64,000 nucleotides of DNA from contig RPFO01000059.1 of the NCBI GenBank assembly GCA_009746045.1, forward strand, positions 2,055,716 through 2,119,715, written 5' to 3'. Positions 7,001-55,547 of the stretch are shown one piece after another. The position numbers and the translations under genes are program-made. The notes below the pieces were generated by a model, which had not been told where the DNA came from, made no database searches, and worked only from the letters and a program-made list of their open reading frames with translations. Each line of letters begins with the position of its first letter. The stretch's first letter is position 1. This DNA is from Mesostigma viride (lineage: Eukaryota; Streptophyta; Mesostigmatophyceae; Mesostigmatales; Mesostigmataceae).

Positions 7001-8927
7001 CCCGGACCCTGTGCGCCCTTGGGACAGCGTCATGATGGACTTTGTGGGACCGTTCGCGTTGACCAAGGCAGGTAATGAGCAACTTCTAGTCATTCTAGAC
7101 CGGATGACACGGCGCTGTCACTTACTGCCGTGTCCTCTGAACCTCACGGCTGAGGCATGTGCCAAGCTTTACCTGAACAATGTCTTCCGGTTCCACGGAA
7201 TGAGTCGCCAGTTCATTAGCGACAAGGACAAGTTGTTCACATCCAAGTTCTGGCAGAGTTTCTTTTCTGCCCTTGGTATCAAGGTAACGCTCGGCACCGC
7301 CTACCACAGTTCGACTTCACATCTGGTGGAGCGACTTAACCGTGTGGTGCAGGAGAGTTTGCGTCATTACGTGGATAGGGGTGGAGGCGACTGGGATGAG
7401 ATCGTGCCGATGGTGGAATTTGCCCTCAACAATTCTCCTATCGCAGCACATGGGTATACCCCGTTCTTTCTGGACACGGGTCAGCACCCTCTCACTCCGG
7501 CCGACCTTCTGACCGGCACCCTGTTGGAGCAGCCGGTTCCATTACAATTCGTTCAAGTGGCCCGCCGGAGCGGCTGTACAATTTTTCCCAGTGAGCGCGC
7601 TGCCAAGTGTACTTGTGGGCAAATTTTTAGGTGCCCCGTCACTTAGAGGTACTAAAAATTAGGCTACGGTACGAATTCAGCGAATTTCAGCGAATTTTCA
7701 GTCGAACCAAAGGAAGTGACGGCAACTACCAAAAAGTTTCCGTTACGAATTTTCAGCCCAACACTCGCGCAAAATGAAGTGACGGCAACTACCAAAAAGT
7801 TTCCGTTACGAATTTTCACTCCCACACGTTTGCACAAGAGGAAGTGACGGCAACTACCAAAAAGTTTCCGTTACGAATTTTCAGTCCCACACTTCGCGCA
7901 AATTTTAGTAGGGCTGCACGCAAGCTACCTTTCAAAATTTTGCGCTAGTATGGAACGCATTTCATTCGTCTGGAGGAACGCTGCCCGCCAACTACCCCCG
8001 TTCAGAAAGTTCCGCCGAAATTTACTTGAGATTTGGAAATCTGAACGTCCGCGCAAGTTTTAGTAGGGCTGCACGCAAGCTACCTTTCAAAATTTTGCGC
8101 AAGTATGGAACGCAATTCATTCGTCCGGAGGAATGCTGCTCGTCAACTGCCCCCGTTCAGAAAGTTGCGCCGAACTTTACTTGAGATTTGGAAATCTGAA
8201 CGTGCGGTTGGAGTTTCGCGGGGAAACCCAAGTTCCCGAGTAATTCACCAATGACGCGCTTCGAACACTTGCCCGCTAAAACCTAAGCAGCCGCTCCGGC
8301 TGGCCACTTAAACGAAACTTGATGCTACGGAACTCCGATGCAGGGGTGCGGGAGCTGTTGGAGAACCTGCGACTGGCCCATGATTGTGCCATCGCCGGGT
8401 ACACCAAGGCTCGAGACAAGTACATAGCGCGAACCCTGGCAGCCAGGGACTCACGGACTCCGGAGATCAAGGAGGGTGATCTGGTGTTGCTGGAAGGTCC
8501 GCGCGTGGGGCGCTTCCGAGAGAAATTCGAAGAAGGCCTCAAGACCAAGTTGCGACCACTATTCATGGGACCCTACCTAGTCGAGAAGCGGTTCAACGAG
8601 GTCATGTACTATGTCCGAGTCCCTTCCTCCTGGAACCTTAAGTCTAATCTCTTTCATCGGGATCAACTTAAGTTGTACAAGGAGAGTGCCGTTCAAGGCA
8701 GGGTGGACGCTCCGGCGCCTATAGAGCACGACCCAGAGACGGGGGAGCGTGAGGACGAGGTGGACGCCATCATAGGACACCGCGATACGCGTCGAGGACG
8801 ACAGTTCCTGATCCGTTGGATGTTCCACCGGTCGCAACATGACAGCAGCTGGTTGCCTGAGTCCCAGCTAGATGGTAATTGTGCACGCCTTCTTAGCGAG
8901 TACAAGGCGCGACACTCACTTACGTAG
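4025..8927 (+). pseudogene. pol: E1 pol: protease, RT, RNase H, integrase, chromodomain (broken)
   Basis: The protease motif VLVDSGAAVTFIS lies near 4279. RT runs about 4850-5610, with FTVLDCADGFWQLRIAPED and the catalytic YLDDILVYS near 5453. RNase H follows (SDASKVAIGGVLMQD, QTDHRPLTHLL). Integrase has an HHCC finger (HDEQHSGHRG then CRSC) and the three catalytic acidic contexts MMDFVGPF, FISDKDKLF and HLVERLNR. The C-terminus (8319-8927) includes a chromodomain, EVDAIIGHRDTRRG to SSWLPESQL, which marks a chromovirus. Breaks: a frameshift near 5608 before FLGMASYYRRF, a local double shift between about 5790 and 5900, a DNA element at 7548-8316 splitting the integrase C-terminal part, and a shift near 8335. 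The RT carries about 30 extra residues just before YLDD. Confidence 0.88.
7548..8316. mobile_element. Non-autonomous inverted-repeat DNA element inserted in E1 integrase
   Basis: The two ends are inverted copies over about 28 bases: from the left TTCGTTCAAGTGGCCC and onward to CGGCTG at 7576, and on the right CAGCCGCTCCGGC to CGAA (8288-8316), with two or three mismatches. The interior has no ORF. It holds three tandem copies of a 64-base unit (starts 7713, 7776, 7841; GAAGTGACGGCAACTACC) and two tandem copies of a 155-base unit (starts 7896 and 8051). Integrase homology stops on the left and resumes on the right. I could not define a target duplication, so the superfamily is open. Confidence 0.7.
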
Positions 8928-8944: not shown

Positions 8945-10537
8945 GTGTGTGTGTGTGGCATGGCTGGGATGGTTGGAAAACCGTGCGTTGCGCGTTGTTG
9001 TGTTGTCTTGTGCCCCTCCCGTGTTCACTTGCAGGAGGAGGCACGCCGCACCTGGGAGGCCTGCGGGTTCTACCACATGGCCAGTGTTGCATTAACCCAT
9101 TATTCTGCGCGGTTCTCACGGGCCTTTCGCCCGTTGTCTGCGGAGGAGCGGACGCGCTTCAGCGACACCGTGGCCCCCCTCGTCTCGTTCCTGGGACCGA
9201 GTGGGGGTGCCCGTGTTGGCGAATTCATGAGGCCTTCGTGTGCGTGCCCAAGCTGCCCAGGGAAGTTGGCTTCTATCCAGGAGTGTCCAAGGTTGGCATC
9301 GGGACTGCTGACATACGCGGGATTTGAGGTGCTCAAGACCCAGGACGGTGGCTACTGGCTGGATTTCTTTCCGGCCGAGCCCGAGACTCCGGCCTTGAGA
9401 TATGTTGGGCGAGTCCTGGTGGCGACGGCTATGCGGCAGCTGGATGATAAGTGGTTGTCCAACTTACCCTTGGAGACCGCGGCTGACGATCAGTCGGTCG
9501 ACATGGGTGAGCCGGTGTGCAGTCAGCATACGGGTGAACCCGTCATCGATTCCAGCACTCTGTCAGTTGGTTCCACAGCTGAGGGCGGTCTGCCGGCACG
9601 TGCATCCAAGGCCAAGAAAAAGAAGAAGGCTCAGCAGTCAGCGGAGCCTTGGGTGGAGGGCCATGATGGCGGGGGCCCGGGTGGTGGGTCGTTAGTGTCG
9701 AGACGCGAGGTCGTTACAGACCCGGTGGCCTCGGACGCGAACGACAAGGCGTCCGACTTCTCATCGCAGTCCGCGGTGGAGGTCGAGCAGCGGGTTTCCA
9801 CCCAGCTGCAGGCGCTGCGTTTAGGTTTGGAGGAACAGATGGTTGCACAGCTGGCGGAGGTTTTTGAGGCGCGGTTGTCCACCACGATGGAAGCGGTACT
9901 CCAAAAGGTGATGGAGCGTATGTTGACTCCCCAAGCGGCGGCGGGACCTGGGGCTTCTGCACCTTCCAGTGCAGGACCCATTCAGGTCGCGCCTCAAGGG
10001 CCGGGCGGGGCAGTCACCAGCGCGACGTTACCGGTGGGTACTGTGACCGTTGCTGGTGGTAATACCGGGGTTGCGGGGCCGTCAGGTCCCCCCATGACGG
10101 GGCTTTCCAGTGCCCGTCCAGGGGTCGCATCGGGGCCGTCAGGTCCCCACGTGGCGGGGCTTTCCAGCTCCTCCCACCGACCTTTGGTTCCTGTCCAGGT
10201 TCCCCCTCAGGGGTCTGGGTGGACCTCCCTATTGACGCAACAGGTGGGTTTGATGTCGGAGCTTGGACCGGGTACGTCGGGGGTAGGGCGCGGACGCGGG
10301 GGCGGTATGCGGGGTGGTGGCATGGTGGCGCAGGGTACAGTTCCGGGTATGGTGACGTTCCAGTCTTCCCCTGTGGTGTTGCCAGGGACCCAGCAGGCGG
10401 GGCCACTGCAGCAGGCGCAACAAGGGGCGCAGCAGCCATCACGGCAGCCGCTCCAACAGCCGCAGCGACAGCAGGTGCAGCAGCCGCTCCAACAGCCGCA
10501 GCGGCAGCAGGTGCAGCAACAACATCAGCAGTACTGA
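8945..10537 (+). CDS. E1 ORF3, N-terminal part (accessory gene 3' of pol)
   Basis: The function is unknown. This ORF lies just after the chromodomain stop, where env or an accessory ORF would sit. The ATG at 9078 (MASVALTHYS) is a better start than 8945. Visible parts: a globular N-terminal domain of roughly 130 residues with CACPSC at 9239-9256 followed by ECPRL; a Lys-rich patch (KAKKKKKAQQ); a helical stretch near codons for VSTQLQALRLGLEEQMVAQL that may form a coiled coil; then a long Gly/Pro/Ser linker and a Gln-rich end. The N-terminal Cys motif also occurs in E2 and E3 at the same place. No signal peptide or transmembrane segment is evident, so a classical envelope protein is unlikely. 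Confidence 0.65.
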   Translation: MCVCGMAGMVGKPCVARCCVVLCPSRVHLQEEARRTWEACGFYHMASVALTHYSARFSRAFRPLSAEERTRFSDTVAPLVSFLGPSGGARVGEFMRPSCACPSCPGKLASIQECPRLASGLLTYAGFEVLKTQDGGYWLDFFPAEPETPALRYVGRVLVATAMRQLDDKWLSNLPLETAADDQSVDMGEPVCSQHTGEPVIDSSTLSVGSTAEGGLPARASKAKKKKKAQQSAEPWVEGHDGGGPGGGSLVSRREVVTDPVASDANDKASDFSSQSAVEVEQRVSTQLQALRLGLEEQMVAQLAEVFEARLSTTMEAVLQKVMERMLTPQAAAGPGASAPSSAGPIQVAPQGPGGAVTSATLPVGTVTVAGGNTGVAGPSGPPMTGLSSARPGVASGPSGPHVAGLSSSSHRPLVPVQVPPQGSGWTSLLTQQVGLMSELGPGTSGVGRGRGGGMRGGGMVAQGTVPGMVTFQSSPVVLPGTQQAGPLQQAQQGAQQPSRQPLQQPQRQQVQQPLQQPQRQQVQQQHQQY

Positions 10538-10558
10538 GAGTCAGGGTATTGGAGTGCC

Positions 10559-11413
10559 TTGATGTCTCCGGAGGCTGCTCAATTTTCCGGTACGGACTGG
10601 ACAGGACAACCGGTTCCACGGGCGTCGCTGGGTCAGCCTTTGCTGTTGGCGGCCGATGGCGTGGGCAGTTTTTTGTCGCAACGTACCGTCAGCAAGTCTT
10701 CGGGGGTATTTGAGGGAGAGTTGCGCATGTGGGAGGCACAGGCTCCCAAGGGGATGTGGGATCCCCCAGCAGGGTTCCACCTGTTAAAACCGGTCGTGGT
10801 GCGGGCCACATCGGCGGTAACGGTACAGGAGGGGACGCGGCGGGTTATGGTGGGTTTGAGGCTGCATCCAGCACGCGCCTTTCCGGTGGTGCTGGAGCGA
10901 TCCCCTCGGTTGCCTGGTAAGTCGCGGTCAGCGACTGAGCCGCCACCACCCAGCGAGCCGCGGTTCGAGGGGGATGTCTGGGATCCCACCCCAGACGGAT
11001 ACCACTGTCCTGGCATCGGGGCGGTGCGGCATCCTAAATACAGTGTGGAGCCGGACATTCTCCTCTGGGAGATGGCACGCCCCGAGGGGGCCAAGCAGGT
11101 GAAGGGAAGTCGATCAGACATGATCCCCCCTGTTTTCGAGGCGGTGGCCTCCGTGGTGGAGCAGGCCAGATGTGGGTTTGTCGATCGTGTAAAATGGAAG
11201 GTTGTCATCACGCGTCACCGGTGCCTGTGGGCGTTTCAAGGCATTTTCCCGGTGACGCGGCGTGATGAGAACGGCCGGGTCTTGGTGCGGGGGGTGTTGC
11301 GGGACTGTAATATGGACCGTGACACGCCGACCCAGGATATGCGGGCGCGTCAACAGCGTTACGAGGAATACCTTCTCTCGCTCCAAGGGGCAGTCACTCA
11401 GTACAACTGGTAG
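10559..11413 (+). CDS. E1 ORF3, C-terminal part
   Basis: This frame follows the first ORF3 frame after 21 bases and is probably the C-terminal domain of the same protein, separated by an indel or stop; a separate start at the ATG at 10559 is the alternative. It contains MWDPPAGFHLLKP near the start of the conserved domain and VVITRHRCLWAFQGIFP near the end (about 11200-11250), both matched in E2 and E3. I know no family with these motifs. It ends at 11413, 295 bases before the 3' LTR. Confidence 0.6.
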   Translation: MMSPEAAQFSGTDWTGQPVPRASLGQPLLLAADGVGSFLSQRTVSKSSGVFEGELRMWEAQAPKGMWDPPAGFHLLKPVVVRATSAVTVQEGTRRVMVGLRLHPARAFPVVLERSPRLPGKSRSATEPPPPSEPRFEGDVWDPTPDGYHCPGIGAVRHPKYSVEPDILLWEMARPEGAKQVKGSRSDMIPPVFEAVASVVEQARCGFVDRVKWKVVITRHRCLWAFQGIFPVTRRDENGRVLVRGVLRDCNMDRDTPTQDMRARQQRYEEYLLSLQGAVTQYNW

Positions 11414-11692: not shown

Positions 11693-11708
11693 TATGGGGG
11701 GGGAAGAG
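11693..11708 (+). promoter_or_regulatory. E1 polypurine tract
   Basis: TATGGGGGGGGAAGAG directly precedes TGTTACGTCC. It is the expected primer for plus-strand DNA synthesis at the 5' edge of a 3' LTR. E2 and E3 have G-rich tracts in the same place. Confidence 0.75.
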
Positions 11709-12450
11709 TGTTACGTCCAAGCTTGTTTACTTAGGGTTCGTTAGTGGACATATTGGCCGTAACAATATACTGTCGTCAGATTTGTGTAGCTAGTTACGCA
11801 CCCTTTTTCCAAGGGGTTGGCCTACGTTGCTTTTAATAGCACATTATGTGTAGGTCAGGGCCCGGCGCTGTGGTGTAGCGCCGGCTAGCTAGGCCGAGCC
11901 ACGTGGTGGGCTGAGCCTTAGTCTAGGGCATTTTCCAGTCTACGCCCATTCGTAGCTAGTTCGGTGGCTTTCAGGTTTACAACACATTCCAGTGTTTTAT
12001 CATTCGTGGCTAGTCGGGAGGGTGGGTTTCCACCCGCCGTTATTCCGAAACAGTCCACAATCGGGAGTGTTGTTATTGGGCCGGTTGTGGGCCGATCATC
12101 TATGCATCATGCATGCCCGCGTTGTGCATCGTCTTCCAACGTGCACGACGGCGGGCATATTATAGGTGTTGGTGTTTTATTTACCTGCTCGCTCTCGGTT
12201 AATTGCAATGGCATAAAGTGACTCACGTCTACTTTCCGAGGGGGCTCTGCCCGCGGGTTGGGATAAAGTATGGATTCCAATTCCTGACGTACAAGTTACA
12301 TGCCATTATCACGATCCGGAATGTCCTGATAAATGTATCGCACATCCTGCTCCAGGGATTAGTTCCTACCATGAAGTCGACCATCGTCCACGACAGTCAG
12401 TCGTGGATCAGGTGTAGATCTTTCGCAGCCGGCAGTCAGCCGGATGTAAA
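11709..12450 (+). repeat. E1 3' LTR, right end missing
   Basis: It begins TGTTACGTCC like the E3 LTR. No matching GGACGTAACA end is found before E2 pol homology begins, so the LTR is truncated or joined by recombination. The true right boundary is uncertain; part of 12230-12450 could be unrelated sequence. There is no coding signal. Confidence 0.55.
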
Positions 12451-12459
12451 AGTAGTTTT

Positions 12460-14932: not shown

Positions 14933-15008
14933 CTGGCAACCTGCCCCTCCCTTATCGTATTCCTGCTGTTGGTGGGTGGTTGGTTGTCCCCTCCCCTCCG
15001 CAGCCATC

Positions 15009-17334
15009 ATGGCTGACTTTACCCATCCGTCGGAGAGCCTGCCGCCTTCCCCTCCACCACCGGACCCAGAGCTCTACTTCGAGGCCCTTCCGGGCCGCTG
15101 GGTGTCACGTTCCAGTTATCCGGGTGGCCTCGTTCAGCCTGCCCTCCAGGCTCAGCGTGCGACTTTAGTCAGGGCTGCTCTCTTTGGGGTCGCGTGGTTC
15201 GGCCCGGCCCCCGATGATCCGCACCAGCTAGTTGTGCATGGGTTCGAGGATGCCGGGCATTGTCTTTTAGGATGTGGCTCCCGCTGTCCAGCCTTGGAGC
15301 AGATAGCAGCTGTCCTTCAGTGCCCCCGGGTGTTTTCCTACCTGTCTACCCCTGTGGGCCGCTCCTGCCTACGGGAGGTGTTCCCCTGGCTTCCGGGCGA
15401 GGGTGAGGCAGAGGTAGATGACAACCCCTGTGACCTCCTACGGGCAGTAGAGTTCATGGAAATCGCAGACCAGTCAGCGGGAGTAGCAGTTGGCGACCCT
15501 TCCCCTACGGACGCACCAGTCAGAGGCGCAGTACACTCCAGAGTACTCGGCCTCAAGTGCAGCGTCCTCCTCCTCCGTGTCGGCTCCTTCCCCTGTCCCG
15601 TCTTCACCACGGTCGACCCGGCGTGCGTCGGTGGAGCCTACCCCTTTGGGTTTGGATCGCGAGCCTGATCATCTCTCGGCGACTGTTTCGGCGATGCAGG
15701 CCCAGATTCAGTCCCTGACCGCGGCATTCGGGGCCTTCATGGCGGCCCAGGCGCAGGCTCCAGCCACGCCAGGTGGGGTGTCTGTTGTATCTGCGCCCCC
15801 TACCCCTTCGGTTGCCTCGGCGCCTACGGTTTCGCCTGCGCTGTGCGAGCCTTCGGTAGCTGCGGTTTCCTCTGTTGCTGCGGCTCCTACGCCTCTGGTT
15901 GCCTCTGCGCCTGCGACCGACGTGCCTGCGCCTCTGCGCGAGTCTTCCGCCCCAGTGGCCGCGCCCGCCGTCGCCGCCTCTGGGCCGCCCGCCGCGCCAT
16001 CGCAGCCATTGCGGGGTTTCTTTAGCGACACGGGCGGTCTTCCCAGGCTTTGGGAGGGTGGTCCCCCGCAGAGGATTCCGGTGCCCGACTGGAGCTTGGA
16101 TGGTAACCAGTCTTATGCCGGATTGCCTGTCCCTACGGGCCCTGTTTTCAATATGTGGCCTGAGGGTGCGCCGTCATCGGAGACCGGCGCGCCAGTTGCG
16201 GTGGCGGGTCCGTCGCGGCCCCCTTCGGCCTCGGGTCCGGCGCGACCTCCTGTTGTACCGGCGCCGTCTACGTCTGTGCCGGTTCCTACCCCTGCTTCGG
16301 CCTCTGCCCCTTCGGCCTCGCGGTCTTTGGCTGCGGTTGTTCGGGCTAGCGGTCCGGATCCTCGCGCCACCCGCGCTGCTGATTCCCTCCGGGAGTTGTC
16401 CCAGGGCGATCGGGACCGGGCCCCTTCTGTGGTGCATGCGACGCCGGAGTCGCGCGACACGCCCGTCCCCGGGTATGGTATGTCTGCGCTCGCCTGCCGA
16501 CAGTGTGACCTGCCGCGCGCCTCCGCCGAGCTTGCCATTTCGCCCATGTCATACGGGTTCGCCCAGGTGGGTCGGGCGCCGCGGGACCGTGGCCTACCCA
16601 TTGAGACTGATCGGCCTCCTTTCGACATGGTTATCTTAGCTGATCCGGTGTTCCAGGGTGAGATCCTGGTTCGGCGCGTTCTGTATCGCTGGGCTAGGCG
16701 TCACAACGACTTGGACACCTACGGTGGGTTCCAGTGGGCTTACCCTCCGCCTCTGGGCATTATGGCTTCGGATGCCCTTACGGTAGAGTTTCCTGCGGTG
16801 CCGGGTGCTACGTACAGCACGGTTCTCCAGCCCATCCTGGAGTGGGATGCCCGTCGTCCAGCGCCCATCCCGGGCCAGGGTCTGGACTCCCGTGGCCATC
16901 CTCCTCCTCGGGCCAGCGACTACCTAGAGACGTTCGGGTCGCGACAGTGTGCTCGTCGGTGGCGCTCCCGTGAGGTTCGGCACATCCGGATGTGGCTGTC
17001 TAACGTGGAGCCCCTGGTAGATCTGTTCTTCCCGACGGGTTTGCGCCCTCGGATCCGGTACCACCGCCTACTCCTGCGGGCTCTCTGTTTGATCGCGGTA
17101 GAGCCTTTCCTTCGCCTCTTTGCCTGTGGTTTCCTGGACTGGGCCCGTGGCCAGGTCGTTCTTACGCAGCATAGGTATTACTGGGCCTTTCTGGGTCTTT
17201 TTCCTGATGGCGTGTGGGCCGATGTTTTCCTCACTGTAGATAGGCATGACAATGCCGATGATGTGGCCCACTACCAGGCGTATCTGGAGGTTCTGCTGGC
17301 CTCTCGTGGCACTTACCAGACGGATGGCAACTAG
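15009..17334 (+). pseudogene. E2 ORF3 (accessory gene 3' of pol), one frameshift
   Basis: The function is unknown. The first frame from the ATG at 15009 (MADFTHPSES) carries a Cys motif, CLLGCGSRC at 15261-15287, followed by LQCPRV, matching the E1 and E3 ORF3 N-termini. Near 15490-15540 the frame changes. The second frame has a helical segment (ATVSAMQAQIQSLTAAFGAF), a long Pro/Ala/Ser-rich linker, then a C-terminal domain starting around FQWAYPPPLGI and ending with VVLTQHRYYWAFLGLFP and the stop at 17334. Order, position and end motifs equal those of E1 and E3. No transmembrane segment is obvious. Confidence 0.65.
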
Positions 17335-17338
17335 ATAT

Positions 17339-17983
17339 GTAGGCGCCACAACGACTTGGACACCTACGGTGGGTTCCAGTGGGCTTACCCTCCGCCTCTG
17401 GGCATTATGGCTTCGGATGCCCTTACGGTAGAGTTTCCTGCGGTGCCGGGTGTTACGTATACCACGGTCCTCCAGCCCATCCTCGAGTGGGATGCCCGAC
17501 GTCCGGCGCCCCTCCCGGGCCAGGGTCTAGACTCCCGCGGTCACCCTCCTCCTCGGGCCAGCGACTACCTAGAGACATTCGGGTCGCGCCAGTGTACGCG
17601 TCGGTGGCGCTCCCGAGAGGTTCGGCACATCCGGTTGTGGCCGTCCAACGTGGAGCCCTTGGTGGACCTGTTTTTCCCGACGGGTTTGCGCCCTCGGATC
17701 CGGTATCATCGCCTCCTCCTGCGGGCCCTCTGTTTGATAGCGGTAGAGCCTTTCCTTCGCCTCTTTGCCTGTGGCTTCCTGGACTGGGCCCGTGGCCATG
17801 CAGGTCGTTCTTACTCAGCATAGGTATTACTGGGCCTTTCTGGGCCTTTTTCCTGACGGCGTGTGGGCCGATGTTTTCCTCACCGTAGATAGGCATGACA
17901 ATGTTGAGGATGTGGCCCATTACCAGGCCTACCTGGATGTCCTGCTGGCCTCCCGTGGTACCTACCAGACGGATGGCCATTAG
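17339..17983 (+). repeat. Tandem duplicate of the E2 ORF3 C-terminal domain
   Basis: From TAGGCGCCACAACGACTTGG onward this segment repeats 16695-17338 with scattered substitutions. It encodes the same domain (YPPPLGI to WAFLGLFP) but has a frame break near 17800 and no start of its own. The unit is about 645 bases. It looks like a direct duplication by slippage or unequal crossing over rather than a new gene. Confidence 0.8.
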
Positions 17984-18352
17984 ATAGAGGGCCTTAGGCC
18001 CGACCTGAGGGTGTTGTCCCTCCGGTATGTAGAGTCGCCCTCATGTTCTGGCCAGTTGACTGGTCGTTCTTGGTCCTTGGTGCTGACTGGTTTACTCTGT
18101 GTGTCCTGCCCAGTGCCGTTCCCCCCGGCAAGGACTTCGTTCCAGGCAGTTAGGGGAACCTACCACCAGGCTTGGTGCTGGCTAACCCTACACCTCCAGG
18201 CGTGGTGGTGGAGACCGTGTGAACTATTGGTGCCTTGTATCTTGGATGGCCTGCTGACTGTGTTAGTGTGTGCTGGGTGCATTAGGTTTCCTACCCCTTG
18301 TTTTCCTCCCTGTACGTAGGGAGAGGGCTCCCTACCTTTGTGGGGGGGGAGG
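17984..18352 (+). other. E2 3' UTR with polypurine tract
   Basis: This non-coding stretch ends in TGTGGGGGGGGAGG directly before the LTR start TGTTACGTCGCG. The stretch is repeated at 19617-19988 in the second E2-type remnant, including GGCCCGACCTGAGGG near its start. Confidence 0.7.
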
Positions 18353-18924
18353 TGTTACGTCGCGTAACAATTCGTTGTAGTTACGGACGTAAATTAGGTC
18401 CTTTGCCTCGGTTGTCCCTAGGTTTACGTTTAGGCTCCTACCGGGACATTATTGTCCTCGTAACAGTACTGAGGTACATTGGGTGCCGTTGGGCGCCGTG
18501 CCGCGTACTTTACTAGTGGTCCTGATCCTGTGGTAGAATGTAGTGGACCAGCGTGCATCAGTAGATTTAGTGGACCAGCGTGCACCTGTAGGCGAGGGCC
18601 ATGTCGGCCCGAGCGTGTTGGACCGTTGGTGACCATTTATGCGTGTTCTACCCCTTGTGTGTGCACTCGGCGTGTGTTAAATGAATTAACACATATTAGC
18701 TTGGGTCACGGCAGTGTAGTTGTGTTTCCTTCCTCTTTTCCTGGAGTAAACGGGTTTGACTAAATGGCCTATGGCATATTACAGTAGTACATATGTAAAT
18801 GCATTGAGATCTGGTTCGTCTCGGTCGTCTTTCGCTAAGGGTGCAAATAGAAGTGGCCTTACTAGTCTAGGTAGTATTAGGACAAGTAGAGGTAGAGGTG
18901 GCGGCCGAGGCTTGCGGCGTAACA
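18353..18924 (+). repeat. E2 3' LTR (572 bp)
   Basis: It begins TGTTACGTCGC and ends GCGGCGTAACA, an inverted terminal pair with one mismatch. It contains a short direct repeat of AGTGGACCAGCGTGCA near 18541-18585 and a small open frame near its end that is only LTR sequence. The next base begins LINE A-type sequence. Confidence 0.8.
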
Positions 18925-19616: not shown

Positions 19617-20852
19617 CCCGACCTGAGGGTGTTGTCCCTCCGGTATATAGAGTCGCCCTCATATTCTGGCCAGTTGATTGGCTGTTCTTGGTCCTTGGTA
19701 CTGATTTGTTTATTTACTCTGTGTGTCCTGCCCAGTGCCGTCCCCCCCCGGCAAGGACTTCGTTCCAGGCAGTTAGGGGAACCTAGCTCCCACCAGGCTT
19801 GGTGCTGGCTAACCCTACACCACCCGGCGTGGTGGTGGAGACCGAGTTAACTATTGGTGCTTTGTATCTTGTATGGCCTGTCGATTGTGTTGGTGTGTAC
19901 ATGTGCTGGGTGCATTAGGATTTCCCTACCCCTTTGGTTTCCTCCCTGTGCGTAGGGAGAGGGCTCCCTACCTTTGTGGGGGGGGAGGTGTTACGTCGCG
20001 TAACAATTCGTTGTAGTTACGGACGTAAATTAGGTCCTTTGCCTCGGCTGTTCCTAGGTTTACGTGTAGTTCCAACTGGGACATTATTGTCCTCGTAACA
20101 GTACTGTGGTACATTGGGTGCTTTTGGGCGCCGCGCCGCATACTTTATTAGTGGTCCTTATCCTTTGGTAGGATGCATCCTTTGGTAGGATGAGTGTAGT
20201 GGACCAGAGTGCATCTGTGCGTCTGCCTGTGTATCTGTAGGCGAGGGCCAGGTCGGCCCGAGCATGTTGGACCGTTGGTGACCATTTATCAAAGAGACAA
20301 CCAGCGCAGGCCAGAAATCGGGAGAATCCGGACCATGGTAGCTCGAGCCTGCCGTTATCTTTTCCGCGTTTTCGAGTCGTTCAGGATGATGAAGATGAAT
20401 GGTGATGGAAATGTGTATCCTTGTGCATTGAAATTATGGCTGGCTTACGTGTGGAGCGACTAGATGACCTAGACGGTGGGGCCGGAAACAGCATGCTTGA
20501 TCAGGGCGTGTGTTTCGAGCCTAACTGGCCGGGAGTGTCTAGTGGTGAGCACCATTGCTGCGATTTATGCACGTTCTATCCCTCGTGTGGTCACTCGGCG
20601 TGTGTTAAATGAATTAACACATATAGGCTTGGGTCACGGCAGTGTAGTGTGTTTCCTTCCTCTATTCCTGGAATAAACGGGTTCGGGTAAATGGTTGTAT
20701 GGCGTATTATAGCAACACATACGTGAATGCATTGAGATCAGCTCCGTCTCGTTCGTCTTTCGCTAGGGGTTTGAGTAGAGGAGGCCTGACCAATTTAGGT
20801 AGTATCAGGCCCAGTAGAGGTAGAGGTGGAGGTAGAAGTTTAGGACGTAACA
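19617..20852 (+). mobile_element. Remnant E2b: 3' UTR plus LTR
   Basis: 19617-19988 repeats the E2 3' UTR including the G-rich tract. 19989-20852 is an LTR from TGTTACGTCGCG to GGACGTAACA. The LTR is 864 bases because of a 273-base insertion at 20290-20562. The upstream body of this element is absent; LINE A' sits at its left edge. It was probably the host into which LINE A' inserted before E2 arrived. Confidence 0.75.
20290..20562. mobile_element. 273-bp insertion in the E2b LTR
   Basis: LTR homology is interrupted here. The hexamer ATTTAT occurs on both sides (20284-20289 and 20563-20568), consistent with a target duplication, while the 18353 LTR has one copy. I see no terminal inverted repeats, tail or ORF, so the element class is unknown. 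Confidence 0.5.
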
Positions 20853-21453
20853 GCTCCGTTCTAGCCACTGGCATCTTGATACCCTAGGCTCATTAGCAGG
20901 GATTAACTACTGGCTATATTTGGAATAAACGTACACCTATTTACCTGGAAACCTGAAATTCCTAAATCCAGGGTCTCAAGATCTGAAACCTGGGAATCAT
21001 AATAAACGTGTGGGGGGGTGTGTACCGAGTACCGACCTGTCCGTCTGTCCGTCGGATTCACCCATCTGACGGTCGTAAAACGTTGGGAGAGTAAACGAGC
21101 GGAATAGGGTTGCGTTGTTGTGGGGGGCATGCCACGGTTTGCCAATCGCCAGTTGCCAACCCTCCTGTGGGCCAGCTTTTACATATACTGTAGTAGAACT
21201 GTACTGTAGTAACATGCTAACAGCTCTGGCCTCTGTTCAGGTCATTTTATTTCCACGTCGGTTCCACCAGACACAACTGTTAAGACTTACGTCCCTCGGT
21301 AATTTATAATGGCCGGCATGCTTCCCCGGCCATTGTCATGTATCTAATGTGTAACCCGAGGTTATCCTCGTCGTTTCCCACATACGTGATACGGTAGGAG
21401 AAACAAAAGTCCAACAGAGAGCTTCCCGATTCATTGTCAATTTCATTCTCATC
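20853..21453 (+). promoter_or_regulatory. Upstream region of the Kelch-FN3 gene
   Basis: This is about 600 non-coding bases between the E2b LTR and the proposed start codon at 21454. A TATA-like TTTATAAT lies at 21302-21309, about 145 bases before the ATG. Any promoter is inferred from position only. The E2b LTR ends 601 bases upstream. Confidence 0.35.
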
Positions 21454-24400: not shown

Positions 24401-27400
24401 GTGGTCGAGTGTGGGTGGCATTCCACCACACCAACGCGCCATACCAATGCATCATGTGAGCGTGTTTAACCAAGCACTTGCTGACGTTGCCCGTCCCTTT
24501 ACTCCTCACCCCCGCTACTCTGCCCCATATTGCGGTTAATGACGTTCACCCATTTCCATTCTTGCGTTGGACGACACACCGGGCCACTGGCTGCCGGCTC
24601 CTGTCCGCTGCTACCGCCTCGCACTCTCTGCATCCCTGGGCTGCGCAGGAGGACATCCTCGCGCAGAAGCAAAGCATAATCAATAAATCTGCCGCCGAAA
24701 TCGATTCCCTAAAGGTATGCGTCCGCACCACTTTTGTTGCTGGCCCCGACAGGCCTGTGAATTCCGAGCGTCCAGCGCACGCCTGTTCGGTCGCTGGCTC
24801 CGGTCGCTGACTCCCTGTCCGCCACCATTTCATCATGCCACCGTGTTGCTGCCGTGATGCCTCCGTGTTGCTGCCGTGATGCCACCGTGTTGCTGCCGTG
24901 ATGCCACCGTGTTGCTGCCGTGATGCCACCGTGTTGCTGCCGTGATGCCACCGTGTTGCTGCCGTGATGCCACCGTGTTGCTGCCGTGATGCCACCGTGT
25001 TGCTGCCGTGATGCCACCGTGTTGCTGCCGTGATGCCACCGTGTTGCTGCCGTGATGCCACCGTGTTGCTGCCGTGATGCCACCGTGTTGCTGCCGTGAT
25101 GCCACCGTGTTGCTGCCGTGATGCCACCGTGTTGCTGCCGTGATGCCACCGTGTTGCTGCCGTGATGCCACCGTGTTGCTGCCGTGATGCCACCGTGTTG
25201 CTGCCGTGATGCCGCCGTGTTGCTGCCGTGATGCCACCGTGTTGCTGCCGTGATGCCACCGTGTTGCTGCCGTGATGCCACCGTGTTGATGCCGTGATGC
25301 CACCGTGTTGCTGCCGTGATGCCACCGTGTTGCTGCCGTGATGCCACCGTGTTGCTGCCGTGATGCCACCGTGTTGCTGCCGTGATGCCACCGTGTTGCT
25401 GCCGTGATGCCACCGTGTTGCTGCCGTGATGCCGCCGTGTTGCTGCCGTGATGCCACCGTGTTGCTGCCGTGATGCCACCGTGTTGCTGCCGTGATGCCA
25501 CCGTGTTGCTGCCGTGATGCCACCGTGTTGCTGCCGTGATGCCACCGTGTTGCTGCCGTGATGCCACCGTGTTGCTGCCGTGATGCCACCGTGTTGCTGC
25601 CGTGATGCCACCGTGTTGCTGCCGTGATGCCACCGTGTTGCTGCCGTGATGCCACCGTGTTGCTGCCGTGATGCCACCGTGTTGCTGCCGTGATGCCACC
25701 GTGTTGCTGCCGTGATGCCACCGTGTTGCTGCCGTGATGCCACCGTGTTGCTGCCGTGATGCCACCGTGTTGCTGCCGTGATGCCACCGTGTTGCTGCCG
25801 TGATGCCACCGTGTTGCTGCCGTGATGCCACCGTGTTGCTGCCGTGATGCCACCGTGTTGCTGCCGTGATGCCACCGTGTTGCTGCCGTGATGCCACCGT
25901 GTTGCTGCCGTGATGCCACCGTGTTGCTGCCGTGATGCCACCGTGTTGCTGCCGTGATGCCACCGTGTTGCTGCCGTGATGCCACCGTGTTGCTGCCGTG
26001 ATGCCACCGTGTTGCTGCCGTGATGCCCCCGTGTTGCTGCCGTGATGCCACCGTGTTGCTGCCGTGATGCCACCGTGTTGCTGCCGTGATGCCACCGTGT
26101 TGCTGCTGTGATGCCACCGTGTTGCTGCCGTGATGCCACCGTGTTGCTGCCGTGATGCCACCGTGTTGCTGCCGTGATGCCACCGTGTTGCTGCCGTGAT
26201 GCCACCGTGTTGCTGCCGTGATGCCACCGTGTTGCTGCCGTGATGCCACCGTGTTGCTGCCGTGATGCCACCGTGTTGCTGCCGTGATGCCACCGTGTTG
26301 CTGCCGTGATGCCACCGTGTTGCTGCCGTGATGCCACCGTGTTGCTGCCGTGATGCCACCGTGTTGCTGCCGTGATGCCACCGTGTTGCTGCCGTGATGC
26401 CACCGTGTTGCTGCCGTGATGCCACCGTGTTGCTGCCGTGATGCCACCGTGTTGCTGCCGTGATGCCACCGTGTTGCTGCCGTGATGCCACCGTGTTGCT
26501 GCCGTGATGCCACCGTGTTGCTGCCGTGATGCCACCGTGTTGCTGCCGTGATGCCACCGTGTTGCTGCCGTGATGCCACCGTGTTGCTGCCGTGATGCCA
26601 CCGTGTTGCTGCCACCGTGATGCCACCGTGTCGCTGCCGTGATGCCACCATGTTGCTGCCGTGATGCCACCGTGTTGCTGCCGTGATGCCACCGTGTTGC
26701 TGCCGTGATGCCACCGTGTTGCTGCCGTGATGCCACCGTGTTGCTGCTGTGATGCCACCGTGTTGCTGCCGTGATGCCACCGTGTTGCTGCCGTGATGCC
26801 ACCGTGTTGCTGCCGTGATGCCACCGTGTTGCTGCCGTGATGCCACCGTGTTGCTGCCGTGATGCCACCGTGTTGCTGCCGTGATGCCACCGTGTTGCTG
26901 CCGTGATGCCACCGTGTTGCTGCCGTGATGCCACCGTGTTGCTGCCGTGATGCCACCGTGTTGCTGCCGTGATGCCACCGTGTTGCTGCCGTGATGCCAC
27001 CGTGTTGCTGCCGTGATGCCACCGTGTTGCTGCCGTGATGCCACCGTGTTGCTGCCGTGATGCCACCGTGTTGCTGCCGTGATGCCACCGTGTTGCTGCC
27101 GTGATGCCACCGTGTTGCTGCCGTGATGCCACCGTGTTGCTGCCGTGATGCCACCGTGTTGCTGCCGTGATGCCACCGTGTTGCTGCCGTGATGCCACCG
27201 TGTTGCTGCCGTGATGCCACCGTGTTGCTGCCGTGATGCCACCGTGTTGCTGCCGTGATGCCACCGTGTTGCTGCCGTGATGCCACCGTGTTGCTGCCAC
27301 CGTGATGCCACCGTGTCGCTGCCGTGATGCCACCATGTTGCTGCCGTGATGCCACCGTGTTGCTGCCGTGATGCCACCGTGTTGCTGCCGTGATGCCACC

Positions 27401-30400
27401 GTGTTGCTGCCGTGATGCCACCGTGTTGCTGCTGTGATGCCACCGTGTTGCTGCCGTGATGCCACCGTGTTGCTGCCGTGATGCCACCGTGTTGCTGCCG
27501 TGATGCCACCGTGTTGCTGCCGTGATGCCACCGTGTTGCTGCCGTGATGCCACCGTGTTGCTGCCGTGATGCCACCGTGTTGCTGCCGTGATGCCACCGT
27601 GTTGCTGCCGTGATGCCACCGTGTTGCTGCCGTGATGCCACCGTGTTGCTGCCGTGATGCCACCGTGTTGCTGCCGTGATGCCACCGTGTTGCTGCCGTG
27701 ATGCCACCGTGTTGCTGCCGTGATGCCACCGTGTTGCTGCCGTGATGCCACCGTGTTGCTGCCGTGATGCCACCGTGTTGCTGCCGTGTTGCCACCGTGT
27801 TGCTGCCGTGATGCCACCGTGTTGCTGCCGTGATGCCACCGTGTTGCTGCCGTGTTGCCACCGTGTTGCTGCCGTGATGCCACCGTGTTGCTGCCGTGAT
27901 GCCACCGTGTTGCTGCCGTGATGCCACCGTGTTGCTGCCGTGATGCCACCGTGTTGCTGCCGTGATGCCACCGTGTTGCTGCCGTGATGCCACCGTGTTG
28001 CTGCCGTGATGCCACCGTGTTGCTGCCGTGATGCCACCGTGTTGCTGCCGTGATGCCACCGTGTTGCTGCCGTGATGCCACCGTGTTGCTGCCGTGATGC
28101 CACCGTGTTGCTGCCGTGATGCCACCGTGTTGCTGCCGTGATGCCACCGTGTTGCTGCCGTGATGCCACCGTGTTGCTGCCGTGATGCCACCGTGTTGCT
28201 GCCGTGATGCCACCGTGTTGCTGCCGTGATGCCACCGTGTTGCTGCCGTGATGCCACCGTGTTGCTGCCGTGATGCCACCGTGTTGCTGCCGTGATGCCA
28301 CCGTGTTGCTGCCGTGATGCCACCGTGTTGCTGCCGTGATGCCACCGTGTTGCTGCCGTGATGCCACCATGTTGCTGCCGTGATGCCACCGTGTTGCTGC
28401 CGTGATGCCACCGTGTTGCTGCCGTGATGCCACCGTGTTGCTGCCGTGATGCCACCGTGTTGCTGCCGTGATGCCACCGTGTTGCTGCCGTGATGCCACC
28501 GTGTTGCTGCCGTGATGCCACCGTGTTGCTGCCGTGATGCCACCGTGTTGCTGCCGTGATGCCACCGTGTTGCTGCCGTGATGCCACCGTGTTGCTGCCG
28601 TGATGCCACCGTGTTGCTGCCGTGATGCCACCGTGTTGCTGCCGTGATGCCACCGTGTTGCTGCCGTGATGCCACCGTGTTGCTGCCGTGATGCCACGGT
28701 GTTGCTGCCGTGATGCCACCGTGTTGCTGCCGTGATGCCCCCGTGTTGCTGCCGTGATGCCACCGTGTTGCTGCCGTGATGCCACCGTGTTGCTGCCGTG
28801 ATGCCACCGTGTTGCTGCCGTGACGCCACCGTGTTGCTGCCGTGATGCCACCGTGTTGCTGCCGTGATGCCACCGTGTTGCTGCCGTGATGCCACCGTGT
28901 TGCTGCCGTGATGCCACCGTGTTGCTGCCGTGATGCCACCGTGTTGCTGCCGTGATGCCACCGTGTTGCTGCCGTGATGCCACCGTGTTGCTGCCGTGAT
29001 GCCACCGTGTTGCTGCCGTGATGCCACCGTGTTGCTGCCGTGATGCCACCGTGTTGCTGCCGTGATGCCACCGTGTTGCTGCCGTGATGCCACCGTGTTG
29101 CTGCCGTGATGCCACCGTGTTGCTGCCGTGATGCCACCGTGTTGCTGCCGTGATGCCACCGTGTTGCTGCCGTGATGCCACCGTGTTGCTGCCGTGATGC
29201 CACCGTGTTGCTGCCGTGATGCCACCGTGTTGCTGCCGTGATGCCACCGTGTTGCTGCCGTGATGCCACCGTGTTGCTGCCGTGATGCCACCGTGTTGCT
29301 GCCGTGATGCCACCGTGTTGCTGCCGTGATGCCACCGTGTTGCTGCCGTGATGCCACCGTGTTGCTGCCGTGATGCCACCGTGTTGCTGCCGTGATGCCA
29401 CCGTGTTGCTGCCGTGATGCCACCGTGTTGCTGCCGTGATGCCACCGTGTTGCTGCCGTGATGCCACCGTGTTGCTGCCGTGTTGCCACCGTGTTGCTGC
29501 CGTGATGCCACCGTGTTGCTGCCGTGATGCCGCCGTGTTGCTGCCGTGATGCCACCGTGTTGCTGCCGTGATGCCACCGTGTTGCTGCCGTGATGCCACC
29601 GTGTTGCTGCCGTGATGCCACCGTGTTGCTGCCGTGATGCCACCGTGTTGCTGCCGTGATGCCACCGTGTTGCTGCCGTGATGCCACCGTGTTGCTGCCG
29701 TGATGCCACCGTGTTGCTGCCGTGATGCCACCGTGTTGCTGCCGCGATGCCACCGTGTTGCTGCCGTGATGCCACCGTGTTGCTGCCGTGATGCCACCGT
29801 GTTGCTGCCGTGATGCCACGGTGTTGCTGCCGTGATGCACGACCATGCGTTGGGGGGGGTTGGGCACGTGGCCGCGTTTTCAATTTGGATGATTGCCAGT
29901 CCGTGCGATGCTGGACGCATTTACGGGGAATTTGAACTAGCAGTTTGTGGCGAGGTTTATGTGGAGGTTTTATCGGCAATGCGTGGTGAGTTGGACGCGG
30001 AGCCATGTCTGGGAGGGTGGTATCGCGCACGCGGGCACATGTGCACATTATTATCCCACCGTGTGCGAACTGGCTTATAAACCTGTGTTGATAAGCAGGA
30101 CTCGTGCTCACCCGCCAGACTCGTGTCATCATTGCACGAGGGGGCCTGGCCCATCTCCGTGTGCTGTCTCTCAAGGCATCTCACGCGCTGCCTACCCACT
30201 GTGACTCTGCCTTCGCCCGCCATGCGCGGCTGGAAGCGCTCACTTCCGCTGGGTCCCGTCCCTTGTCATGCGCTCACCGGTGCTCGTGCCCTCGTCGGTG
30301 CTCGTGCCCTCACTCGTGCCCTCATCGGTGCTCGTGCCCTCACCGGCCTTCCTTGTTGTCTGGCTGGCTCCTCCTACAGGCCACGCTTGCGGACACAGAG

Positions 30401-40374: not shown

Positions 40375-42923
40375 CTAGCGTCCACCGCTAGTAGCCCGCC
40401 GCAGCTGCTGGGCCTCAAGGAGAGCCCGTCGCCCCGCAGGGGTCATGATATGAGTCATCACCCCTGGATGCGCACGTAGGTCCGCCTCGAAGGCGATCTG
40501 ATATGGGGACGTCTTCTGCCGACCCAACCGGGACAGCTCGACCCACGTGCCCGGGGCCACATGGCCAGGAACCCGGCGAGGTACTGGGGGTGGGTAAAGA
40601 GAAGGGTCAGCGCCGACCAATCCGCCACCCCACAGCGGTGATCACGAACAAACTGCACCCCCATCATGAAAACTTCGGTGCGCACGTGATCCTCAAGGAT
40701 GGTTGCCCTGGGGGCCCCTACAATGTCCGGCACCACCCGACCCAGGAAGGCGCGCCCTTCCGCCGGGGCCACCTTGGGCGGCGTAACCACGTGCCCCACT
40801 CCATCCACCTGATACCTCCAATCCCACCATTCCTCGGTGCCGAACCGCACCGTGTTGCCCACCGTCCGGGGAAAACGAAGGTCGTCAGGTTGCGGCAAGG
40901 GCAGCGGCGCCTGTGGGAAGAAGGTGATCTCGAGTTGTTCCCAGTAAGCACCCCGGTCAACCGCGCACCAAGGGCCCGCTTGAAAAACCAAAGGGGCGGG
41001 CAGGTGCATACCAGGAGGGACCGGGAACAAGGGACCCTCGAACACCACACACAACTTCTCCGTGCGAGGCCCCGGCCCACCGTGTCTTACGGTCCTTCCC
41101 GGAATGGTTCGTATGAAGTCCCCCAACGACCATTCCTCATGTGAGGCTGCCCGGGAAGCGGCCTCGTAGCCTACTGAGGTGGCGACTGAATGATCGCCCT
41201 GGCGCCCGAGCTGGTCCAACATCCGCTGTATGAGACCCTGCCCTGATTGCACCGCTGCCACGAGTGTCTCAATGGTAACCACGGGCTCCGCCGGCACCAT
41301 GACACCCGCCACGCTGGGACCCTCCGCGGCATTCCGTACGGTATGCAAGCACGGTCCCTCCGCGGGAAGATGCGAATGTCGGTCCGAGGTAGTAGGCCTG
41401 CTGGGTCCCTCCGCAGGACGTGACATCGACGGTTCAGCCTGGGCAGGCCGGTGACGAGGCTCCAAGGAGACCAAGAAGTGGGGCTCCGGTGGGACCTCTT
41501 CCACTCGGGAGCGAGGCTCCAGGGAGACATGAAAGGTAGTCTCTTCTTGGCCCGCATCGGGCGGGTTGCTAGCGGGAACCTCATCAATAGGCTCCTCTCT
41601 AGCCGGCCGTTCGGCCATGGCCACCGCGGCCTCTGTCGGATCCGTTCGCCGTCGCCGATTCTCCCGCTCTTGCTCCAACTCTACCGCCGACCCCCACGTG
41701 CGCTCCCATTGCCGATCCGCTGGTCGGCGAGGTGGTGGGACGCTTGGCGAGCGGGCGTACCTCAGTCCCGGAGTCCGAGCGGGAACGCGAACGTGAGGGC
41801 GGGGATGGCGAGCGACGACGTGCCTGCCCCTCCGGAACACGTCGAGGAACGGCTTGGCTGTCCCCACCCCATCCGGTCGCCCTTGGAAGACTCCGCGTCT
41901 CGCGCCCTAGAGGTCGCCCCCAGCCCGTCGCCGGCGGTGGCGCCTCAATACGAGGCACAGGACGGCTTCTTCCGCCGCTCCCCTGGGAACCCCGAGACGG
42001 CGGATCCCGCGGAGGGGAACGAGAGGGAGGGTGGTGTGGAGGATGGTCTTCGTCGTCGGAACTGGAGTCATATCCCTCACTCCCATCATCCTGGTCCTCC
42101 TCGTCCATCGCCACAATGTGATCCAGAGCCTGCCGCAACGAATACTGCCCTTCTCGCATGCATTTCTGACCCCGTAGCGCCCCTTCTGGCGGAAGATACC
42201 GGGGGAAGTGGTATTCCAGCAGCTTTCGCACTGGAGGTGGAAGTAAGAGGAGAAGGAGCCGTGGGAACGCCAGGCCCGCCTCAAGCGTGTTCATGCACCC
42301 GTGACAGGCGCATTCCCGCTCATGTGTCTCCCATCGGTCCCAACCACCACTCCGTTGCGCGCAGCCGTGCGGGTCTCGATCCGGAATCTCACGTTGCGCC
42401 TCACGAACCCTCGGAAAGTCTCCATCTGCGCAGGACCGACTCGCGCCATGATAGAATCAGCGCGGAGGTGCGACGGCATTTGATTACGACGACGCCGTCG
42501 TCGTTCCACCAGGGCTTCCCCCTCTCGACCGTAGTCACGCAAGAACACCCGAGGATTGAACGTCTCCTCGTGCAGCTCCTTTACCAGCGCCAACGTACGC
42601 GCGTCCGGAGCTCCAGGCCTTGACGAGGTTTCTTGCCGGCGCTCGCGACTAGAGGAGGGCCCCGTCTGTCCGCCACCATCTCTCGAGCCCCCGGCCCCTG
42701 GTGCATCCCTTCGGACCGCAGGCTCTCCGCGAGCTATCTGCGTCCTTACCCCCGCTTCCGGTTCTGGGACCTCCGGATCGTCGGGTATATCCATGTCGAC
42801 CAAATCCCCCTCACTGGACTCCCCTCTGCACCCGGAATCCTGCGTCAGCAGCCTCCACGGCGCCGACGGAAGTCTGGTCTCTGGGAAGCGCCTCCGCGGC
42901 GTCCCCCTGTACAGCCCACACAC
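40375..42923 (-). pseudogene. E3 ORF3 (accessory gene 3' of pol), frameshifted
   Basis: The function is unknown. The N-terminal frame (42923 to about 42310) begins MCGLYRGTPRRRF and includes a basic patch (RRRRRRNQM). The next frame carries CACHGC at 42312-42295 and AFPRLLLLLLPPP, aligned with the E1 and E2 Cys motif, then an acidic, Ser-rich linker. A third frame (about 41700 to 40560) holds the C-terminal domain from LFPVPPGMHLPAP to FTHPQYLAGFLAMWP. A last shift leads to a stop at 40375 (GRRALLEAQQLRR). There are about three frameshifts. Position and domain order equal those of E1 and E2, so this is the same gene. Confidence 0.62.
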
Positions 42924-49054: not shown

Positions 49055-49115
<61 letters not shown>

Positions 49116-49128
49116 TTGCTGTTGCTGT

Positions 49129-49188
<60 letters not shown>

Positions 49189-49240: not shown

Positions 49241-49264
49241 CTCCCTGCCTGGTTAACCCTTAGT

Positions 49265-55517: not shown

Positions 55518-55547
55518 TTAAAGTTAATTAAATTATAACATGCCTCC

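What the first reader, a model, noticed from the sequence alone, without database searches (positions are those of the whole stretch)
8945..11413. A shared accessory gene (ORF3) between pol and the 3' LTR of three divergent chromoviruses
E1 (8945-11413), E2 (15009-17334) and E3 (42923-40375, minus) each carry a long ORF in the same place. All three have an N-terminal Cys motif followed by (C/F)PR: CACPSC...ECPRL, CLLGCGSRC...LQCPRV, CACHGC...AFPRL. All have a low-complexity middle, and a C-terminal domain that opens with a PP-G motif (DPPAGFHLL, YPPPLGI, VPPGMHLP) and closes with TRHRCLWAFQGIFP, TQHRYYWAFLGLFP or FTHPQYLAGFLAMWP. Conservation across lineages whose other sequence differs greatly suggests selection. 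I see no transmembrane segment, so it does not look like env. I know no described family with this layout.
Basis: partly seen in the sequence, partly recalled or inferred. Interest (0 to 1): 0.85.

Follow-up and report, generated by a model that had tools for sequence, protein, structure and literature searches.

The report
Third gene of algal retrotransposons
In what is almost certainly the green alga Mesostigma viride, a group of related jumping genes (chromodomain LTR retrotransposons) carries an extra, selectively maintained gene between its enzymes and its end repeat, encoding a protein family with no recognised relatives; its function is unknown and it is probably not an envelope protein.

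Summary
Long open frames of the same genes exist elsewhere in the genome (E1 844 aa, E2 about 815, E3 about 870-884), and a fourth subfamily, E4 (715-721), links them. The C-terminal domain is homologous across four subfamilies (six profile pairs; 0 of 60 column shuffles reach any of them). A Cys-containing N-terminal domain is shared by E1-E3, absent from E4. The C domain is under strong purifying selection (dN/dS about 0.04-0.06 in E2, 0.12 E1, 0.11-0.21 E3); the linker is looser. A chromodomain lies just upstream in 12 of 13 places with enough sequence. It is the inherited third gene of related chromoviruses. No Pfam match at E below 0.2; the only database relatives are Mesostigma gene models. 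A splice-acceptor-like tract precedes ORF3, conserved at DNA level in E2-E4 and E1-E4, suggesting a spliced mRNA. Best reading: a soluble, RNA- or nucleus-associated accessory protein, not an envelope; that function is inference. Structure prediction failed (pLDDT 34-38).

The parts
8945..11413 (+). E1 ORF3, one frame interrupted by TGA at 10535-10537
   Evidence: the related copy L003 lies in an open frame of 844 aa (784 aa of it read)
9011..9034 (+). candidate 3' splice acceptor of E1 (AG at 9033-9034) before the first ATG used here (9077)
   Evidence: best of 576 AGs in the stretch by pyrimidine-tract score; tract shared with E4 (2 of 500 shuffles as good)
9077..9460 (+). E1 N-terminal domain, approximate (CACPSC at 9239, CPR at 9284)
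   Evidence: profile match to E3 N domain E 5e-4
10706..11410 (+). E1 C-terminal domain (PPAGFHLL 10763, WAFQGIFP 11228)
8319..8927 (+). E1 integrase C-terminus (SH3_Tf2-1) and chromodomain, directly upstream of ORF3
   Evidence: Pfam
11696..12451 (+). E1 polypurine tract (GGGGGGGGAAGAG, 11696-11708) and probable 3' LTR (TGTTACG..., 11709-12451)
   Evidence: only its first 101 nt are repeated at the other end of the C1 copy; the right boundary is inferred from the end of similarity
15009..17334 (+). E2 ORF3, frameshifted between about 15490 and 15668
   Evidence: 150 C-domain matches in the genome, the window's own included (scoring cap reached)
14978..15003 (+). candidate 3' splice acceptor of E2 (AG at 15002-15003), 5 nt before the ATG
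   Evidence: the same site in the C1912 copy ties for best of 580 AGs and in L061 is best of 232; tract shared with E4, 0 of 500 shuffles as good
16600..17331 (+). E2 C-terminal domain
   Evidence: dN/dS median 0.044 over 224 pairs of 23 distinct copies
17340..17986 (+). tandem duplicate of the 3' end of E2 ORF3 (92% to 16695-17337)
40375..42923 (-). E3 ORF3 remains, switching between two frames (N motifs 42327-42247; C part 41867-40458; last part 40551-40519)
   Evidence: related open frames of 877 and 810 aa are in L066 and L067
43007..44140 (-). E3 integrase C-terminus and chromodomain upstream of ORF3
   Evidence: Pfam

Best explanation
ORF3 is a sense-strand additional gene (aORF) of related chromodomain Ty3/gypsy elements in Mesostigma viride, most simply explained as inherited with gag-pol and kept by selection. 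SHOWN: position between chromodomain and 3' LTR (LTR seen for E1 and E4); homology of the C domain across four subfamilies; homology of a Cys-containing N domain across three (weakest for E1-E2); purifying selection strongest in the C domain; no homologue outside Mesostigma in the collections searched, with the queries used. INFERRED, moderate: ORF3 is expressed from a spliced subgenomic RNA, because a pyrimidine tract plus AG sits just before its start and, in E2-E4 and E1-E4, is conserved at DNA level where the following DNA is not. INFERRED, weak: the product is soluble (N domain, long Pro/Ala/Ser/Gly-rich linker, perhaps a helix-hairpin-helix core in the C domain) and acts with nucleic acid or RNP, for example on export, packaging or protection of the element's RNA. 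Grounds: the Cys cluster and the Arg/Lys-rich, RGG- or RS-like runs, each in some subfamilies only. Sub-confidences: shared, selected third gene 0.95; spliced expression 0.5; RNA/nuclear accessory role 0.3.
For: C-domain profile matches E2-E4 E 1.7e-19, E1-E4 9e-10, E1-E2 4.5e-8, E3-E4 3e-8, E2-E3 5.6e-5, E1-E3 0.007, none reached by 60 shuffles; N-domain matches E3-E1 5e-4 and E3-E2 2e-4, 0 of 60 shuffles. dN/dS: E2 C domain median 0.044 over 224 pairs of 23 distinct copies (one search counted the window copy twice), 0.051 in 18 pairs of seven copies picked for place or frame length, 0.056 in long E2 ORFs against 0.33 for the linker; E2 integrase 0.030, E1 C 0.12, E3 C 0.11-0.21. Chromodomain 1.9-2.6 kb upstream on the same strand in 12 of 13 distinct places with at least 2.9 kb of upstream sequence, and in 14 more with less; 30 rows with too little sequence showed none. 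Acceptor scores and tract conservation; an 8-of-9 donor AAG|GTATGT in the E4 leader. No hydropathy peak typical of a membrane span. Basic runs KKKKK/RGRGGG (E1), RRRRRR/RSRSRS (E3, L066), RGGGRG (E4).
Against: E1-E3 C-domain and E1-E2 N-domain matches are weak on their own (hhalign probability 5.5% and 3.5%). E4 has no N domain; E2 has no basic run. In E4 10 of 656 AGs score better than the proposed acceptor, in E3 31 of 508 (window) and 25 of 165 (L066), none of 190 in L067; E1-E2 tract similarity is not significant (57 of 500) and E3's is not shared with the others. No donor of 7 of 9 or better in the E1 leader, only two 7-of-9 sites in E3. No transcript was examined. Structure models are not usable (pLDDT 38 and 34). 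The copies in the dN/dS sets all came from protein hit lists, which lowers dN/dS somewhat.
Confidence: 0.55

Rival explanations
1. ORF3 is an envelope-like or cell-to-cell movement protein, as proposed for sense additional ORFs of plant elements such as Athila and Bagy2.
For: [quoted passage not shown]
Against: No transmembrane-like stretch in five ORF3 frames (simple hydropathy scale); the highest peak (1.92) lies in the conserved core of the E2 C domain; no Pfam match. The host is single-celled (abstract of PMC6947507), so a plasmodesmal role is unlikely.
Confidence: 0.1
2. ORF3 is a suppressor of host silencing or another antagonist of host defence.
For: Fast divergence between subfamilies (about 18-36% against 74-90% for RT) fits a host-interaction gene.
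Against: Within E2 the C domain is nearly as constrained as integrase (about 0.05 against 0.03), with no dN/dS above 0.17 in 224 pairs. No functional evidence either way.
Confidence: 0.2
3. ORF3 is a second structural (Gag-like) or particle-associated protein.
For: N domain, flexible linker and C domain, with heptad-like stretches in the linker of E1, E2 and E4 (no control was run for these), and a Cys cluster.
Against: E1 and E3 already encode a Gag (Retrotrans_gag and zf-CCHC); ORF3 matches no gag family.
Confidence: 0.2
4. ORF3 is a captured host gene.
For: Such capture is known (orchid m6A demethylase domain, title and start of abstract of PMC9289625 in search listings; bdelloid GDSL and DEDDy ORF3, PMC5408684 abstract and section 3.3).
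Against: No Pfam or PDB relative, and in about 5.8 billion proteins only five Mesostigma models of ORF3 itself. Those three queries covered the C regions of E4, E3 and E2 only; the N domain was not searched there.
Confidence: 0.1
5. The similarity is chance or decayed coding sequence without function.
For: All three window copies are broken.
Against: Long open frames in many copies, codon-phase substitution and profile matches beyond all shuffles of the C domain.
Confidence: 0.02

Closest known systems
Sense additional ORFs between pol and 3' LTR of plant LTR retrotransposons (aORF-3S; Athila, Bagy2 and other env-like ORFs)
   Same: Position, sense orientation, presence in many copies and possibly spliced expression (review PMC7264820, first of three parts read).
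   Different: Those are described as env-like, some with transmembrane segments; ORF3 has none evident. No direct sequence comparison with them was made beyond Pfam and the protein database. Here it sits in chromodomain elements of a single-celled streptophyte alga.
Retand/Grande/RIRE2 antisense ORFs (TRP28 domain in Retand)
   Same: Extra coding region between pol and 3' LTR, thought to be regulatory and perhaps DNA-binding (abstract of PMC11963269).
   Different: Those are antisense, and Retand is a non-chromovirus lineage; ORF3 is sense, and no Pfam family matched it.
Bdelloid rotifer LTR-retrotransposon ORF3 (GDSL esterase, DEDDy exonuclease, paramyxovirus-like env)
   Same: Non-envelope ORF3 after pol (PMC5408684, abstract and section 3.3).
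   Different: Those match enzyme or viral families; ORF3 matches none. Bdelloid ORF3 types are shared by unrelated elements; this one was seen in related chromoviruses only.
Retroviral Rev/Rex-type accessory proteins (recalled, no call)
   Same: Would share spliced expression and arginine-rich runs if the inference holds.
   Different: No homology tested or claimed; ORF3 is about 700-880 aa, far longer (recalled for Rev/Rex).

Membership tests
Chromoviruses (chromodomain Ty3/gypsy) | Gag, protease, RT, RNase H, integrase with C-terminal chromodomain in that order | tested here: met
   Pfam: E1 has every domain; for E2 RNase H and integrase, for E3 gag, zinc knuckle, integrase and chromodomain pieces were scanned; RT similar to E1's found in E3, in E4 and in E2 copies
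Chromoviruses (chromodomain Ty3/gypsy) | LTR pair with polypurine tract before the 3' LTR | tested here: inconclusive
   E4: 374/377-nt LTRs 98.7% identical in one copy. E1: PPT and 3' LTR, but only 101 nt of it at the 5' end of the C1 copy. E2 and E3 LTR pairs not established; no clear target-site duplication seen by eye
Plant aORF-3S | Sense ORF between pol and 3' LTR | tested here: met
   chromodomain upstream on the same strand in 12 of 13 places with enough sequence, 14 more with less; LTR downstream of ORF3 in E1 and E4 copies
Plant aORF-3S | Present in all or most copies of the element family | not tested
   needs a count of chromodomain loci without ORF3; that search did not complete
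Env-like proteins | Transmembrane segment | tested here: not met
   19-residue hydropathy maxima 1.11-1.92 in five ORF3 frames; simple scale only
Env-like proteins | Spliced subgenomic mRNA | tested here: inconclusive
   acceptor-like sites, one good donor in E4, no RNA data
TRP28 antisense ORFs of Retand | Antisense orientation and TRP28 domain | tested here: not met
   ORF3 is sense; no Pfam match, though whether TRP28 is in that Pfam copy was not checked
Bdelloid-type enzymatic ORF3 (GDSL, DEDDy) | Match to GDSL or DEDDy families | tested here: not met
   no Pfam match at E<=1 in P0004, P0005, P0008, L066 and L067 nor in the 10 C-domain members

The most novel reading that the evidence does not exclude
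ORF3 is a new class of retrotransposon-encoded regulator: made from a spliced RNA, it acts on the element's own unspliced RNA (export, packaging or protection) through a fold not yet described, as an independent counterpart, in a streptophyte alga's chromoviruses, of retroviral Rev-type regulation.
Probability: 0.1. Interest if true: 0.75.

Novelty: new variant of a known kind. Interest (0 to 1): 0.5.

Why it matters
Third genes of LTR retrotransposons mark the border between transposon and retrovirus, and many have unknown function. Here is one with many copies, several subfamilies, clear selection and no evident membrane segment, in an alga at the base of the streptophytes. It lets one ask what a chromovirus gains from a third, non-envelope gene, and whether spliced expression arose before land plants.

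Tried and rejected
Structure prediction from window sequences only (E2 first; E1 first): pLDDT 38 and 34, too poor for a fold search, so none was run; both models place helix, strand, strand, helix at the conserved motif, at low confidence. PDB: single-sequence search with an E4 ORF3 gave E 0.00099 in its repetitive linker and otherwise 0.59 or worse; profile searches with the two domains gave 1 or worse. Pfam's weak hits (TFIIA 7.1, Pox_Ag35 1.4, DUF7496 0.22) are below the cut-offs. The E2 C domain found no relative in viral or prokaryote contigs. Self-comparison of the window did not find LTR pairs. Testing coding constraint before the first ATG in E3 was inconclusive: differences showed no third-position excess. 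E1 N-domain dS is saturated, so no ratio. In one search the N-domain set gave ratios up to 1.45, probably from frameshifted rows; one search repeats it with four rows (median 0.115). In one search the E3 acceptor rank was missed through a pattern one base too long; one search gives it. One search counted the window's E2 copy twice (as window and L009); one search repeats it without.
Full report
Host. The window is G000:C1613:2055716-2119715 of a 439,911,974-base genome in 2243 contigs. Protein searches with ORF3 regions returned only Mesostigma viride gene models (JGI 'Mesvir1' via EukProt): two for E3 (best E 2.9e-43, 51% identity over 80% of the query) and three for E2 (95-97% identity over all of the query); an E4 query found none at E<=10. 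The published assembly of that species is 441,847,188 bp in 2363 scaffolds, with LTR elements at 27.9% (PMC6947507, abstract and passages found). The host is thus very probably Mesostigma viride; that 'Mesvir1' stands for it is recalled.

Observation. Translation shows the motifs. E1 ORF3 is one frame, 8945-11413, with a TGA at 10535-10537. E2 needs a frameshift between about 15490 and 15668, and its 3' end is duplicated in tandem at 17340-17986. E3 switches between two frames several times. The surrounding domains are those of chromoviruses: gag, zinc knuckle, protease, RT, RNase H, integrase, SH3_Tf2-1 and chromodomain in E1, parts of the set in E2 and E3. E1's ORF3 ends 282 nt before a polypurine tract and the LTR start.

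Copies. Open frames around the matches reach 844 aa (E1), about 815-823 aa (E2) and 869-884 aa in several E3 copies (one E3 hit lies in a frame of 1241 aa). E1 matches also revealed a fourth subfamily, E4, with frames up to 721 aa, which links the others by tblastn against 43 loci (E1-E4 1e-7, E2-E4 3e-22, E3-E4 4e-4). One E4 copy has LTRs 98.7% identical, which suggests recent insertion.

Homology. Subfamily alignments were compared profile to profile, with 60 column shuffles each. C domain, observed score against best shuffle: E1-E2 57.1/29.1, E2-E3 38.3/19.5, E1-E3 25.1/22.7, E2-E4 127.0/20.2, E3-E4 59.9/19.6, E1-E4 67.2/23.2. N domain: E3-E1 27.3/18.5, E3-E2 30.5/16.6, E2-E1 19.98/20.0 (one of 60 shuffles as good). 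The alignments are small (2-6 sequences). The N domain has a C-x-C-x2-C or longer Cys cluster, then PR and FP motifs; E4 ORF3 starts about 20 codons after the pol stop with no such domain. Nine columns are invariant in the ten-sequence C-domain alignment.

Selection. Nei-Gojobori dN/dS for the E2 C domain: median 0.044 over the 224 pairs with dS>0.05 among 23 distinct copies (one search had 24 rows, the window copy twice, and gave 0.045 over 246); 0.051 in 18 pairs of seven copies picked for place or frame length; 0.056 for eight long E2 ORFs (24 pairs with dS>0.1), with 0.33 for their linker. E2 N domain median 0.115 in six pairs; E2 integrase 0.030 in two pairs; E1 C domain 0.12 (one pair); E3 C 0.11-0.21 (three pairs), E3 N 0.23 and E3 linker 0.26 (one pair each), so in E3 the linker is only slightly looser than the domains. 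The copies were chosen from protein hits, which favours low values; the near restriction of differences to third codon positions in many pairs (for example 2, 0 and 51 at positions 1, 2 and 3) is not explained by that alone.

Relation to pol. With E1 as query, RT identity is 74% (E2 copies), 77.5% (E4) and 90% over 87 residues (E3); integrase 66-70% for E2 and E4 (one partial E2 hit 59%; E3 was not listed because two matches per record were kept); integrase C-terminus plus chromodomain about 49-56%. ORF3 is about 18-36%. So the carriers are related elements, and ORF3 diverges much faster between subfamilies than pol does; a rooted pol tree was not made. In one search, 29 of 60 rows had a chromodomain upstream on the same strand, 1 had none and 30 had too little sequence. 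Three of the 29 repeat a place, leaving 26. Of these, 12 have at least 2.9 kb of upstream sequence, against one such place without (L061, which has an integrase hit further upstream): 12 of 13. The other 14 were seen in shorter stretches, where a miss would not have counted. The converse, chromodomains without ORF3, could not be counted because that search did not complete.

Expression. A pyrimidine tract and AG precede the ORF3 start: E1 at 9033-9034, E2 at 15002-15003, E4 immediately before its ATG, E3 just before GDAAEA at 42906. By a simple score (pyrimidines at -20 to -5, base -3, base +1, no nearer AG), AGs scoring better: E1 0 of 576, E2 0 of 580 and 0 of 232 (one tie in the first), E4 10 of 656, E3 31 of 508 (window), 25 of 165 (L066) and 0 of 190 (L067, four ties). 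The 75 nt before the AG are alike between E2 and E4 (0 of 500 shuffles as good) and E1 and E4 (2 of 500), not significantly E1-E2 (57 of 500), and not between E3 and the others (best 37 of 500); the 130 nt after it are not alike between E1, E2 and E4 (39-207 of 300). The E4 leader has an 8-of-9 donor site; none of 7 or better was found for E1 and two 7-of-9 sites for E3. Splicing is therefore plausible for E1, E2 and E4, weaker for E3, and not shown.

What it may do. No hydropathy peak suggests a membrane span (1.11-1.92). Pro, Ala, Ser and Gly make up 36-44% of the protein; basic runs occur in E1, E3 and E4 but not E2, and proline-free heptad-like stretches in the linker of E1, E2 and E4 (the E3 best stretch lies in its N domain; no control was run). 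Both weak AlphaFold models place helix, two strands and helix at the conserved CGF..D / WAF.G.FP region. This favours a soluble, nucleic-acid- or RNP-associated accessory protein; the choice among RNA regulator, silencing antagonist and particle component is open.

Literature. Sense extra ORFs between pol and the 3' LTR are a known kind (PMC7264820, first of three parts read), as are antisense TRP28 ORFs (PMC11963269, abstract) and enzymatic bdelloid ORF3s (PMC5408684, abstract and section 3.3). Predicted splice sites in a soybean relative of env-bearing elements are mentioned in PMC1142308 (passages found). Searches for Mesostigma with chromovirus (one paper, a choanoflagellate survey, listing only), Mesostigma with LTR and Gypsy (one paper, listing only), and extra ORFs in chromoviruses, algae, haptophytes and related terms (listings) showed nothing that describes this ORF. 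The held library lacks most subscription journals.

Noticed in passing
window 18771-18923 and 20699-20857; L053 3144-3302; L047 2961-3116: After ORF3 the E2 repeat ends in a conserved open stretch starting MAYYSNTYVNALRS (or close) and ending in an Arg/Gly-rich run about where the repeat stops. It may be the first codons of gag inside a long LTR, or a small fourth ORF.
   Followed up: partly
window 24690-30000: A minisatellite of about 5 kb with a 22-base unit, open in three frames on the minus strand.
   Followed up: no
window 37108-38091: A long simple repeat lying in five listed open frames (WMDG on minus, HPSI on plus).
   Followed up: no
window 31900-32527, 38387-39061 and 55544-56858: Inverted copies of a repeat, 89-100% complementary over pieces; downstream, open frames at 58267-61048 look by eye like a LINE endonuclease and RT (no family search). 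The E1 copy on contig C1 is flanked on both sides by relatives of this repeat.
   Followed up: partly
window 2837 and 12451/12452: E1 similarity to its C1 copy starts abruptly at 2837, and E1 ends exactly where similarity to E2 copies begins: a rearranged or nested junction.
   Followed up: partly
window about 49000-49250, minus strand: The 5' region of E3 carries a long CAG/CAA tract, polyglutamine in one frame.
   Followed up: no
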